The notes beneath the pieces were generated by a model. It ran no database searches. It was not told the origin of the DNA and saw only the letters and a program-made list of their open reading frames with translations. The position numbers and the translations under genes were made by a program. Shown here piece by piece: positions 55,832 to 63,833 of a DNA stretch of 64,000 nt. Position 1 is the first letter of the stretch. Every line of letters begins with the position of its first letter. This DNA comes from Kribbella qitaiheensis (GTDB taxonomy: Bacteria > Actinomycetota > Actinomycetes > Propionibacteriales > Kribbellaceae), in NCBI RefSeq assembly GCF_014217565.1, contig NZ_CP043661.1, positions 4,774,001 to 4,838,000 of the forward strand. The letters run 5' to 3'.

Positions 55832-57377
<1,546 letters not shown>

Positions 57378-61202: not shown

Positions 61203-62078
61203 TCAACGCACGAGTCGCAAGTGGATGTCCGCGACGGTGATGTCCACCCGCTGGCCCCAGCCGATCGACAAGGTGTCGGATTCGATGCCGTCGCCGAAGA
61301 CGACGAGGTCCGATTCGGCGGTCAGCATCAAATGGTCCGAGGAGGCCAAGAGGCCTTCTGTGCAATCGGTTCCGGTCGCTGGTGAGGGCCACGCCTCGCG
61401 GACGAACCAGCAGAGGGCAGGGTCGGTTGCTGCTGGCAAGGACAAGGAGGAGCGGCGTTCCTGCCAGGCTGAGCGGCACCACCCCGTTGACCCCGTGCCG
61501 GTGCCGACCAGCAGACCCGAGGAGGATTGGCGTTCCTCCAGGCCCTCCGGTGAAGCGAGCCGGTAGCGCGCCGACTGGTGCGTCCGGTGCCCCACGTAGA
61601 CCTCGTTCAATGCCAGCAACTTCTGCCCGTCATCGGTGCTGGCGACAACCATCGTGCGTTCCTCGACGGAGAACCCGTGCAGCAGCTCGAGGACGGCGCC
61701 AGGCTCGTGCGGAACCAGTACGCCGGGGTTGCGGCCCGGCTCCGGGTTGACTCCGATCACCGGCTGCCCATCCAGGTACTTCGCCACATTGGCGACCAGC
61801 CCGTCCTGGCCGACCGCGATCACCAGATCCTCCGGACCGAACACGAACCGGTCCAGATCGTTGCGCTCGGCAACTGCTCGCCGCCAGTCCAGCGGGATCG
61901 CGGCCGACACGGTCGCCAGCGCCTCCTGCTGGGCCTGGTGCCGGGCGTCCAGCTCGGCGAGGTCACGGCCGCGCGAAGTCAGGAAGAAGCCGGCCTGCTG
62001 GCGGGTGCCGTGCCGGGCGACCAGCTCGGTGAGTTCGGTCGCCCGGTGCACCACCACCGCCCGGGGTGGCAGGCTCAT
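61203..62078 (-). CDS. diverged NAD/ATP-NAD-kinase-like protein
   Basis: 291 residues. An N-terminal helical stretch, then the NAD-kinase core: FGPEDLVIAVGQDGLVANVAKYLDGQPVIGVNPEPGR, where the usual GGDG is GQDG with the catalytic Asp kept, LALNEVYVGHRTHQSARYRL, GTGTGSTGW (the substrate/ATP loop GSTG) and the late ESDLVVFGDGIE. It may phosphorylate NAD, a related nucleotide or a lipid. The ATG overlaps the SPFH stop by four bases, so it is the second gene of a coupled pair under the divergent NrtR-like regulator. Confidence 0.75.
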   Translation of the reverse strand: MSLPPRAVVVHRATELTELVARHGTRQQAGFFLTSRGRDLAELDARHQAQQEALATVSAAIPLDWRRAVAERNDLDRFVFGPEDLVIAVGQDGLVANVAKYLDGQPVIGVNPEPGRNPGVLVPHEPGAVLELLHGFSVEERTMVVASTDDGQKLLALNEVYVGHRTHQSARYRLASPEGLEERQSSSGLLVGTGTGSTGWCRSAWQERRSSLSLPAATDPALCWFVREAWPSPATGTDCTEGLLASSDHLMLTAESDLVVFGDGIESDTLSIGWGQRVDITVADIHLRLVR

Positions 62079-63067
62079 TCCTGGCTCGCCAGCTTCGCGA
62101 GCAGCGGGGTGATCAGATCCGGCGTCAGGTTCAGCGTGCCGATCTCCGGCAACGCGCCCTGCTTGATCGCGAGAGCCAGGATCGTGCCCTGGCTCAGATC
62201 GGCGTACGCCTCGAGCAGCGCCTTCTCCGCGGCAGCCTCAGCCGCACCCAGTACTCGCTTCGCGTCGGCGTCCGCCTCGGCCAACTGTCGCCGCCGACTG
62301 GCCGCTGCCTCGGTCTCGATCCGCCCGGCCGCGGCCACCTCGGTGGCCCGCTGCCGCTCGTTCTGGCCCTTCTGGGTGACGAGTTGCTCCTCGCGCCGGG
62401 CCAGCTCGATCTGGTTCTGCAGCTCGTTCTCCGCGATCGACCGCTCCCGCTCGACGGCCATCGCGCGCCGCTCGTACGTCGCCTTGTCGGCCGCCTGCTG
62501 AACCATCTCCCGGGTCGGCGTCTGCAGAGCCCGCTCCACATCACTCTCAGCCCGTACTGCGACCACGCGGACGTCTTCCACGCCGATCCCAATTCCGGTC
62601 AGCCGCTGGTCCTCGCGCAAGCCGGTGCTCACCGCGAGCCGTAGCGATGCCATCCCTTCCGACAGCGCCTGGGTCAGTGTCATCCGGGCGAGCAGATCAA
62701 GCGCGGTCTGCTGAGCCAACTCGGTCAGCAGGCCGCCGAGCTGCTCCAGCGGGGTAGCCCGCCAGAAGCCGGTGTCCGGGTCGATCCCGAAGTCGAGCCG
62801 GGTCGAGGCCAGCGCCGGGTCGATCACCCGGTAGGTGACGGTGGCCTGCACGACCACGTCCTGGAAGTCGACCGTCCGGCCGTGGAACAGCAGCGGCTGC
62901 TCGCGGTCGTCGACCGGGATCTCGCTCAGCGACGAGTTCAGGGCCCGGAACCAGAACGCCTGGCCGGCGCCGTCGTGTGCGACCTTCCCGTTGCGCAGGT
63001 GCCGCACGTGGGTGGTCGGGTTGGCTCGCAGGTGGTTGATGAACCGGAACCGGGTGATGTCTGCCAT
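62075..63067 (-). CDS. SPFH/band-7 domain protein
   Basis: 330 residues from the ATG at 63067 (AGGAG upstream). An SPFH-like domain (DFQDVVVQATVTYRVIDPALASTRLDFGIDPDTG, LRLAVSTGLREDQRLTGIGIGVEDVRVVAVRAESDVERALQTPTRE) is followed by a long charged coiled coil (AADKATYERRAMAVERERSIAENELQNQIELARREEQL...). There is no N-terminal membrane helix, unlike most stomatins. It is thus probably a cytosolic or peripherally bound scaffold. It is the first gene of the SPFH/NAD-kinase-like pair, divergent from the NUDIX regulator. Confidence 0.85.
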   Translation of the reverse strand: MADITRFRFINHLRANPTTHVRHLRNGKVAHDGAGQAFWFRALNSSLSEIPVDDREQPLLFHGRTVDFQDVVVQATVTYRVIDPALASTRLDFGIDPDTGFWRATPLEQLGGLLTELAQQTALDLLARMTLTQALSEGMASLRLAVSTGLREDQRLTGIGIGVEDVRVVAVRAESDVERALQTPTREMVQQAADKATYERRAMAVERERSIAENELQNQIELARREEQLVTQKGQNERQRATEVAAAGRIETEAAASRRRQLAEADADAKRVLGAAEAAAEKALLEAYADLSQGTILALAIKQGALPEIGTLNLTPDLITPLLAKLASQE

Positions 63068-63086
63068 AACTCTGTCTCCTCGTTTG

Positions 63087-63134
63087 TCGTCACTTTGACG
63101 ATAAGGCGCTGATGGCTTTTCGTCAAGGTGACGA
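63087..63134. promoter_or_regulatory. twin NrtR-type operators
   Basis: TCGTCA-CTT-TGACGA (63087-63101) and TCGTCA-AGG-TGACGA (63120-63134), both perfect 6-bp inverted repeats, centres 33 bases apart, i.e. three helical turns. They lie 20 bases before the SPFH start and 15 bases before the NUDIX start. Confidence 0.9.
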
Positions 63135-63149
63135 TTAGAGTTGCCCGTC

Positions 63150-63833
63150 ATGGACTTCGAACCGCTGGGCGTCGCCGCCGATCTGGTCATCCTGACCGTT
63201 CGCGAGGGCTCTCTGGAGGTGCTGCTGATCCGCCGCGGGATCGAGCCGCACAAGGGACGCTGGGCGCTACCGGGTGGGTTCGTCCGGCCGAAGGAGGATC
63301 TGGAGGCGGCGGCCAGGCGTGAACTCGCCGAGGAGACCGGGCTGGTCTCCGACCGGATCCACCTGGAACAAGTAGCGACGTACGGGGAACCAGGTCGTGA
63401 TCCCCGTGGCCGGGTGGTGAGCGTGGCTTACCTGGCCCTGGTCCCGGATCTGCCGGCCCCGGTCGCCGGGACCGACGCCGCCTCGGCGAGCTGGGCGCCT
63501 GCGGACGAAGTACTGGCTGATCCGGAGCGGCTCGCGTTCGACCATCACCGGATCCTGGCCGACGGGGTGGAGCGCGCGCGGGCGAAGCTGGAGTACTCGC
63601 CGCTGGCGACCGCGTTCTGTGCGGGCGAGTTCACCATCGCGGAGCTGCGCGGGATCTACGAGGCGGTCTGGGGTACGCCGCTCGACCCGCGCAACTTCCA
63701 TCGCAAGGTCACCAAGACCGACGGCTTCGTCGTACCGCTAGGTGCCACCACCACCCGCGACGGCGGCCGTCCGGCTCAACTGTTCCAGCGCGGCCCGGCC
63801 ACCAACCTCCACCCGCCGCTCACTCGCGGTTGA
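63150..63833 (+). CDS. nrtR: NrtR-type regulator: NUDIX-like domain with C-terminal winged helix
   Basis: 227 residues from the ATG at 63150. N-terminal NUDIX domain: LVILTVREGSLEVLLIRRGIEPHKGRWALPGGFVRPKEDLEAAARRELAEETGL (NUDIX box GGFVRPKEDLEAAARRELAEETG), then a C-terminal winged helix: FTIAELRGIYEAVWGTPLDPRNFHRKVTKTDGFV. This is the build of NrtR, which senses ADP-ribose or related NAD products and represses NAD genes. Twin palindromes between this gene and the SPFH operon are its likely operators. No known NAD gene is next to it, apart from the NAD-kinase-like gene. Confidence 0.88.
   Translation: MDFEPLGVAADLVILTVREGSLEVLLIRRGIEPHKGRWALPGGFVRPKEDLEAAARRELAEETGLVSDRIHLEQVATYGEPGRDPRGRVVSVAYLALVPDLPAPVAGTDAASASWAPADEVLADPERLAFDHHRILADGVERARAKLEYSPLATAFCAGEFTIAELRGIYEAVWGTPLDPRNFHRKVTKTDGFVVPLGATTTRDGGRPAQLFQRGPATNLHPPLTRG

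What the first reader, a model, noticed from the sequence alone, without database searches (positions are those of the whole stretch)
61203..63833. NrtR-type locus linking an SPFH scaffold and a diverged NAD-kinase-like enzyme
A NUDIX/wHTH sensor of NAD products faces a coupled SPFH/NAD-kinase-like operon over two perfect 15-bp operators three helical turns apart. NrtR usually controls NAD synthesis genes. Here the targets are a coiled scaffold without a membrane anchor and a kinase-like protein with GQDG in place of GGDG. This looks like a small NAD-sensing system that I cannot match to a described pathway.
Basis: partly seen in the sequence, partly recalled or inferred. Interest (0 to 1): 0.7.

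Follow-up and report, generated by a model that had tools for sequence, protein, structure and literature searches.

The report
NAD-linked SPFH and kinase gene trio
A compact three-gene unit, found in the same arrangement in very different bacteria, puts a soluble scaffold-type (SPFH) protein and an enzyme resembling the mitochondrial NAD kinase under a local switch of the NAD-sensing type, which suggests an undescribed way for bacteria to adjust their NAD/NADP supply.

Summary
A Nudix/winged-helix NrtR-type gene (63150-63833,+) faces a coupled SPFH/kinase-like operon (62075-63067 and 61203-62078,-; 4-nt overlap) across two perfect-arm 15-bp operators, 33 bp start to start. The trio is real and conserved: among 80 relatives examined, SPFH precedes the kinase-like gene in 80 and a divergent NrtR is seen in 51; the same layout occurs on plasmids of Rhizobium, Moraxella, Providencia and Methylomonas. 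In 40 of 44 two-site promoters the sites are 33-34 bp apart, and bases outside the motif core complete a -35-like and a -10-like element 17-18 bp apart, so promoter geometry probably sets the spacing. The kinase-like protein has a predicted NAD-kinase fold; its closest solved relative is human mitochondrial NADK2, ahead of the bacterial enzymes. GQDG is invariant in members read; the motif Asp and NE/ND pair remain. The genome also has a canonical NAD kinase. In three genomes with a close NrtR but no pair, it adjoins NAD-salvage or ADP-ribosylglycohydrolase genes in two. Best reading: an ADP-ribose-relieved repressor controlling a scaffolded accessory NAD(H) kinase. Activity, ligand and assembly are untested. 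No description of the trio was found in the open papers searched.

The parts
61203..62078 (-). NADK2-like kinase gene (291 aa); GQDG (residues 90-93), NE (158-159), SSSG..GTGTGSTGW, DGIE
62075..63067 (-). SPFH/Band_7 gene (330 aa); SPFH domain about 1-173, then one predicted helix 175-289; no membrane segment by hydrophobicity scan
63087..63101 (.). operator 1, TCGTCACTTTGACGA; overlaps the -10-like element (63098-63103) of the SPFH-kinase promoter
63120..63134 (.). operator 2, TCGTCAAGGTGACGA; contains the -35-like element (63121-63126)
63098..63126 (-). predicted promoter of the SPFH-kinase operon: TTGACG (63126-63121), 17 nt, TATCGT (63103-63098)
   Evidence: consensus match plus conservation; not measured
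63150..63833 (+). NrtR-type Nudix + winged-helix regulator (227 aa from ATG 63150; in-frame TTG at 63141); intact Nudix box

Best explanation
A local NAD-responsive unit. The NrtR-type protein represses the divergent SPFH-kinase operon, and probably its own gene, by sitting on two operators that overlap the -35 and -10 elements. When an NAD breakdown product, most likely ADP-ribose, accumulates, the repressor lets go; with an intact Nudix box, the actinobacterial versions may also hydrolyse the ligand and so reset the switch. The operon then makes a soluble SPFH protein that oligomerises into a ring or cage, and an NADK2-type kinase that it scaffolds, which phosphorylates NAD(H) to NADP(H). 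The result would be an accessory, inducible, spatially organised NADP(H) supply alongside the housekeeping NAD kinase. Shown by sequence, model or comparison: gene linkage, conserved operators and their overlap with a promoter-like sequence, predicted kinase fold and NADK2 affinity, retained motif Asp and NE/ND pair. Inferred: repression, ligand identity, kinase activity despite GQDG, SPFH assembly, a physical SPFH-kinase complex, physiological role.
For: Linkage: SPFH upstream on the same strand in 80 of 80 relatives, divergent NrtR seen in 51 of 80; 4-nt start/stop overlap in 65 of 88 SPFH-kinase pairs, five gaps above 30 nt; same layout in 4 of the 9 plasmid regions opened. Three same-genus genomes lacking the kinase also lack the SPFH gene and the close NrtR, 3 of 3. 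Protein distances of the three genes correlate, r 0.81-0.87 in 51 loci, permutation maximum 0.15. Regulation: of 40 promoters with 33-34-bp spacing, 40 have the T that completes TTGAC(G/A) in the upstream site (9 of 40 in the downstream site) and 40 have TA before the downstream site (10 of 40 before the upstream one). Ligand class: closest solved relatives of the sensor are AraR (5bs6) and the Nudix protein 3gz5 (that 3gz5 is the Shewanella NrtR is recalled); of three close NrtRs outside the module, one adjoins an ADP-ribosylglycohydrolase gene (L146) and one a NAPRTase-isochorismatase fusion (L148); five Streptomyces loci carry a short gene just after the kinase that forms one blastp cluster, NUDIX by Pfam in the three tested. 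Kinase: model pLDDT 93.2, best match human NADK2, Z 24.4 over 275 residues; profile 72.7 bits to NADK2 against 28.8 to the next NAD kinase. SPFH: fold of HflK/C, stomatin, erlin, flotillin and vault protein.
Against: GGDG is replaced by GQDG in 88 of 89 family sequences read, the 89th being a remnant without that part, which could mean a different donor or acceptor or no catalysis. Pfam NAD_kinase is below its cut-off. The NrtR match to NCBIfam's ADPR-responsive repressor is 131.7 bits against a cut-off of 400. NrtR is not seen beside the pair in 29 of 80 relatives, 23 of them Streptomyces (in one, L112, the contig ends 119 bp before the SPFH gene), so the pair does not need this regulator. 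In L147 a close NrtR adjoins a nucleoside-phosphorylase-family gene, not a known NAD gene. The four proteobacterial modules lack the Nudix-box pattern and the actinobacterial operator. No direct evidence for a kinase-SPFH complex. AraR shows that this regulator family can respond to a sugar (PMC4666351, passages).
Confidence: 0.48

Rival explanations
1. The kinase-like protein is a nucleotide-binding pseudo-enzyme or a kinase for another acceptor (for example ADP-ribose, a dinucleotide other than NAD, or a lipid-linked substrate), and its product or bound nucleotide tunes the SPFH assembly.
For: GQDGL in place of the canonical motif is invariant in the ten diverse members aligned and in 88 of 89 read, the kind of fixed change expected for a new specificity; Pfam NAD_kinase below cut-off; a canonical NAD kinase is present.
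Against: Motif Asp, NE/ND pair and the NADK2-like SSG..GxG..W stretch (88 of 89) are retained; predicted NAD-kinase fold with highest similarity to a solved NAD kinase, NADK2.
Confidence: 0.27
2. A membrane- or envelope-stress unit: the SPFH protein is the main actor, recruited to membranes as other bacterial SPFH proteins are, and the kinase only supplies NADPH locally for repair.
For: A Bacillus subtilis SPFH protein links the phage-shock protein to the membrane (PMC8581546, title and start of abstract in the listing); structural match to HflK/C, stomatin and flotillin.
Against: No hydrophobic membrane segment in the window protein or in the set; regulator type and two of three nearby regulatory contexts point to NAD products. 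Neighbour clusters were mostly not annotated, so shared envelope genes in a minority of loci are not excluded.
Confidence: 0.13
3. A mobile stress or anti-NADase defence unit that restores NADP(H) or senses ADP-ribose made by NAD-degrading immune effectors or toxins.
For: Patchy distribution: 12 clear matches among 396 actinobacterial genomes; on plasmids of several phyla; ADP-ribose is a product of NAD-cleaving immune enzymes (PMC13174449, passages).
Against: No PADLOC match for the kinase or SPFH proteins tested (window and Rhizobium); one match in the Nudix part of the window NrtR, PDC-S07, 24.4 bits, E 4.5e-6. No relative found in phage records with the window protein or in viral contigs with the family alignment. 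Near-universal in this genus, 34 of 37.
Confidence: 0.12

Closest known systems
NrtR family (Nudix-related repressors of NAD metabolism) and the related AraR
   Same: N-terminal Nudix plus C-terminal NrtR winged helix; palindromic operator beside its own gene; similar to solved 5bs6 (AraR) and 3gz5
   Different: Intact Nudix-box pattern in the actinobacterial type; neighbours are an SPFH-kinase operon, not NAD-synthesis genes; operator TCGTCAnnnTGACGA differs from the mycobacterial GTTTTCGA-N7-TCGAAAAC (PMC6800001, passages)
Mitochondrial NAD kinase NADK2 (human; 7r4j, 7n29)
   Same: Best sequence and fold match; shared N-terminal segment; an SSG..GxG..W stretch (88 of 89) and an N-P-x-R-xx-G-x-L-like stretch (67 of 89) that the two canonical enzymes of this genome lack
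   Different: GGDG is GQDG here; bacterial, in an SPFH operon; 24% identity in the structural alignment
Canonical bacterial NAD kinases
   Same: Fold, motif Asp, NE/ND pair
   Different: The two of this genome lack the NADK2-like stretches; the better one scores only 16.6 bits against NADK2
SPFH proteins (HflK/C, stomatin, erlin, flotillin; major vault protein)
   Same: SPFH domain followed by a long helix
   Different: No hydrophobic anchor found; no domain before SPFH, unlike the vault protein; sits in an operon with a NAD-kinase-like gene

Membership tests
NrtR family | Nudix domain followed by NrtR winged helix | tested here: met
   PF00293 86.9 bits, PF21906 50.6 bits, both over cut-off
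NrtR family | Palindromic operator at its own divergent promoter | tested here: met
   Sequence conservation only; binding not measured
NrtR family | Impaired Nudix box, as reported for NAD-metabolism NrtRs | tested here: not met
   Pattern intact in the window protein and 51 of 51 related module NrtRs (49 of 51 by the strict signature); absent in 4 of 4 proteobacterial ones
NrtR family | ADP-ribose or NAD as effector | not testable with these tools
   Needs a binding assay
NCBIfam NF050029 (ADPR-responsive repressor, equivalog) | Score over curated cut-off | tested here: not met
   131.7 bits against 400
NAD kinase superfamily | NAD-kinase fold | tested here: met
   Predicted model; Z 24.4 to 7r4j, 21.5 to 7qvs
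NAD kinase superfamily | GGDG motif | tested here: not met
   GQDG in 88 of 89 read, the other a remnant
NAD kinase superfamily | Motif Asp and NE/ND pair retained | tested here: met
   D92 and N158 invariant in 10 of 10 and 51 of 51; position 159 is E or D. Their catalytic role is recalled
NAD kinase superfamily | Pfam NAD_kinase over gathering score | tested here: not met
   18.6 against 25.5 bits
NAD kinase superfamily | NAD or NADH phosphorylation | not testable with these tools
   Needs an enzyme assay
SPFH/Band_7 | SPFH domain followed by long helix | tested here: met
   PF01145 43.3 bits over 23.6; model and fold matches
SPFH/Band_7 | N-terminal membrane anchor (typical, not universal) | tested here: not met
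   No hydrophobic segment by Kyte-Doolittle scan; lipidation or amphipathic binding not tested
SPFH/Band_7 | Ring or cage assembly | not testable with these tools
   Needs microscopy
Major vault protein | Vault repeat domains before SPFH | tested here: not met
   Only Band_7 listed by Pfam at E up to 1; first SPFH strand at residue 3

The most novel reading that the evidence does not exclude
A bacterial, anchor-free SPFH shell dedicated to NAD metabolism: it binds ADP-ribose or NAD at the SPFH layer, as the vault shoulder does, holds an NADK2-type kinase, and is switched on by an ADP-ribose-hydrolysing repressor. Its kinase family would be the bacterial sister, possibly the source, of mitochondrial NADK2, whose prokaryotic origin is unsettled.
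Probability: 0.12. Interest if true: 0.88.

Novelty: new variant of a known kind. Interest (0 to 1): 0.63.

Why it matters
If the reading is right, bacteria have a dedicated, inducible and scaffolded NADP(H)-making unit controlled by a product of NAD breakdown. It would add an NrtR target class not found in the papers I could search, and a role for anchor-free SPFH proteins. It also offers a candidate bacterial relative for the mitochondrial NAD kinase clade, for which a published survey found no consistent prokaryotic sister (PMC6675116, passages). The trio is compact and occurs in culturable soil bacteria, so each step is directly testable.

Tried and rejected
Other operator targets: the three further perfect sites in the genome lie inside long reading frames, so a wider perfect-site regulon was rejected; the one-mismatch sites (77 places at up to one mismatch, listing capped, reversed-pattern control 15) were not followed. 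Phage or viral carriage: no match in phage records; 36 viral stretches matched a pattern but none was a relative. Defence membership: see rival 3. E. coli: no DNA match to the Moraxella version. A further conserved neighbour: 589 neighbouring proteins, called by a GC-position heuristic, gave families in at most 9 of 80 loci; most clusters were not annotated, and ten neighbours were scanned with Pfam. Proteobacterial operators: 0 of 4 carry the actinobacterial motif; TGTC-N5-GACA occurs in Moraxella (3) and Providencia (2), Methylomonas matched only looser alternatives, Rhizobium none by that pattern but has a perfect TCAACTAAGTTAGTTGA palindrome; not pursued. Prevalence in Pseudomonadota was not sampled (one search failed). 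A kinase tree with eukaryotic NAD kinases was not built, so 'sister of NADK2' is not tested by phylogeny. My second note says 41 of the 44 spacings are 33-34 bp; the recount gives 40, and 40 is used. The -35/-10 hexamers share bases with the operator core, so the '40 of 40' is partly built in; the bases outside the core were therefore counted apart. Motif regexes for NE/ND, GxGxxW and DGI were too narrow and are not used. In one search one of 30 same-genus loci (window genome included) did not match my GQDG regex and was not examined further.
Full report
What is there. The window lies in an 8.16-Mb single-contig genome. Its genus is probably Kribbella: same-genus contigs have the same lengths as named Kribbella contigs, for example 2,432,495 and 204,058 bases. 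At the end of the window an NrtR-type gene (ATG 63150 to 63833, plus strand) diverges from an operon of an SPFH gene (62075-63067) and a kinase-like gene (61203-62078), which overlap by 4 nt. The 82-bp gap holds two 15-bp sites with perfect 6-bp arms, 33 bp start to start.

Is it kept? The kinase-like protein was found in 34 of 37 genomes of the genus, the window genome included, and in 37 of 58 genomes of that search. The three same-genus genomes without it, G001, G009 and G021, gave no SPFH match and only a distant NrtR at 44-46% identity; in G005 such a distant copy lies about 1 kb from a nadA gene (only this one was looked at). In all 80 the SPFH gene lies upstream on the same strand within 1 kb, and in 51 a divergent NrtR is seen beyond it. 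Of the 29 without, 23 are Streptomyces, and in one, L112, the contig ends 119 bp before the SPFH gene. Among 396 actinobacterial genomes drawn evenly (window genome included), 17 matched at E up to 1e-10: 12 clearly, 2 as fragments, and 3 at about 41 bits that are probably ordinary NAD kinases. In the plasmid collection 62 records matched, 57 over at least 80% of the query. Of 9 plasmid regions opened, 4 show the same divergent NrtR-SPFH-kinase layout: Rhizobium etli p42f, Moraxella osloensis, Providencia alcalifaciens and Methylomonas. Three have the pair without an adjacent NrtR: Treponema (a NUDIX gene about 4 kb away), Roseomonas and Kitasatospora. One has a shortened SPFH copy and no NrtR, and one only a kinase remnant. 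Distances of the three proteins correlate at r 0.81-0.87 over 51 loci; common descent alone would also give correlation.

The switch. Of 56 nrtR-SPFH intergenic regions scanned, 52 are of the actinobacterial type (window included; L055 is from a MAG labelled Acidobacteria). Of these, 44 have two sites at up to 2 mismatches and 8, all Lentzea, have one; the 4 proteobacterial ones have none of this motif. Spacing is 33 bp in 8 and 34 bp in 32 of the 44; the rest are 27, 27, 36 and 45. A promoter scan found one minus-strand match, TTGACG-17-TATCGT, lying across both operators. In the SPFH reading direction, all 40 promoters with 33-34-bp spacing have TTGACG (39) or TTGACA (1) in the upstream site and TATCGT at the downstream site, 17 or 18 bp apart. 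Part of these hexamers is the operator core itself, so the outside bases were counted apart: the T that begins TTGAC is present in 40 of 40 upstream but 9 of 40 downstream sites, and TA precedes 40 of 40 downstream but 10 of 40 upstream sites; the 8 single-site promoters also have TA before their site. The spacing is explained most simply by repressor sites laid over the -35 and -10 elements. In the genome the other three perfect sites are inside long reading frames, and the module NrtR is the only match to NrtR_WHD at E up to 0.01 and to the protein itself at E up to 1e-10. The regulator therefore looks local. Its Nudix-box pattern is intact in the window and in 51 of 51 related module NrtRs (49 of 51 by the strict signature) and absent in 4 of 4 proteobacterial ones. 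NrtRs of NAD metabolism are described as having an impaired box (PMC4666351, passages; PMC6800001, passages).

What it may sense. Nine genomes were searched for NrtR. Three that lack the kinase and SPFH genes hold a close NrtR at 60-67% identity, and their surroundings were read. One is followed by an ADP-ribosylglycohydrolase gene. One lies by a NAPRTase-isochorismatase fusion (NAD salvage), with a perfect TAGTCAATATGACTA palindrome 19 nt upstream of that frame. One lies by a nucleoside-phosphorylase-family gene, with a perfect TTGTCACTTTGACAA palindrome 19 nt before the NrtR frame. Two of three thus point to NAD or ADP-ribose. Among the 29 relatives without a seen NrtR, five, all Streptomyces, have a short gene 45-166 nt downstream of the kinase that forms one blastp cluster; NUDIX was confirmed by Pfam in the three tested, L097, L114 and L119.

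The kinase. Its predicted model is confident (pLDDT 93.2, pTM 0.89). The top Foldseek matches are human mitochondrial NADK2 (7r4l, E 1.6e-18), with bacterial NAD kinases close behind (7qvs, E 4.3e-17); VIA-align gives Z 24.4, 3.0 A over 275 residues for 7r4j, against 21.5 for the Pseudomonas enzyme. A profile of ten diverse members scores NADK2 at 72.7 bits and the next NAD kinase at 28.8; the 51-member profile gives 63.3 and 35.8. The genome's canonical NAD kinase scores NADK2 at 16.6 bits only. In a small local test, with database size set by hand, the NADK2 C-terminal piece hit 82 of 89 family sequences at E below 1e-3 and the canonical enzymes at 0.037 or worse; the N-terminal piece hit 44 of 89, canonical 0.0079 at best. 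GQDGL is in 88 of 89 sequences read (the 89th, L044, is a remnant without that part), and GQDG in 29 of 30 same-genus loci found without a motif pattern. D92 and N158 are invariant, with E or D at 159. Catalytic roles of these residues are recalled, not tested. A published survey found two NAD kinase genes in Kribbella and other mycelial actinobacteria and no consistent prokaryotic sister for the eukaryotic clades (PMC6675116, passages); this third family is not mentioned in the passages I saw.

The SPFH protein. The model (pLDDT 85.4, pTM 0.52) shows an SPFH domain over residues 1-173 and one helix 175-289, matching HflK/C, stomatin, erlin, flotillin and the vault protein. No hydrophobic membrane segment was found. 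The vault comparison matters because its shoulder is reported to bind ADP-ribose, NAD and ADP (PMC13174449, a preprint, passages and section 13); whether the bacterial protein shares that pocket was not tested. The genome has four other Band_7 genes.

Verdict. Papers searched: NrtR+SPFH (none), NrtR/band 7/NAD kinase, any two (four listed, none relevant by title), SPFH/Nudix/NAD kinase, any two (20 of 38 listed, none of those with both SPFH and NAD kinase), SPFH+NAD kinase (none), SPFH+bacteria+operon+nudix (four listed; one looked at by passages, without this trio), NAD kinase+NrtR+actinobacteria (none), NrtR+Nudix+regulon (20 of 21 listed, two looked at by passages). The library holds open-licence papers only, and the founding NrtR survey was not held, so 'undescribed' is limited to that. 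The mechanism beyond the conserved DNA sites and the predicted kinase fold is inference.

Noticed in passing
L037 5300-6924, L038 4961-6924, L044 428-877: On three tet(H) plasmids (uncultured-host pAST2, Moraxella osloensis, Actinobacillus pleuropneumoniae) the kinase gene, whole or as a C-terminal remnant, lies directly beside tetR(H); the shared pieces are 100% identical in protein, so the resistance element seems to have picked up part of the module.
   Followed up: partly
L149 (G005:C3:309000-319000): A second, distant NrtR (44%) lies about 1 kb from nadA, while the window's own genome shows no second NrtR at E up to 1e-10.
   Followed up: partly
L147 1651-5778: A close NrtR overlaps a phosphorylase-superfamily (PNP_UDP_1) gene followed by a 708-aa protein without a Pfam match at E up to 1e-5; it resembles a separate nucleotide-linked unit.
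   Followed up: no
L097 6952-7587, L114 7038-7592, L119 7063-7524: Streptomyces loci without a seen NrtR have a NUDIX gene in the same direction just after the kinase.
   Followed up: partly
L091 2840-4192 and seven loci of the same cluster: An arginine deiminase gene (Pfam-tested in L091 only) diverges from the SPFH-kinase pair in place of NrtR in Streptomyces.
   Followed up: no
window 56112-57377: A reading frame with the look of a secreted trypsin-like protease with a C-terminal extension; recognised by eye, not checked by any search.
   Followed up: no
L142 2722-4236 (around G000:C1:5294999): One perfect operator-like site lies in a frame that looks like an L,D-transpeptidase, next to one that looks like a macro-domain protein; names by eye, probably chance.
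   Followed up: no
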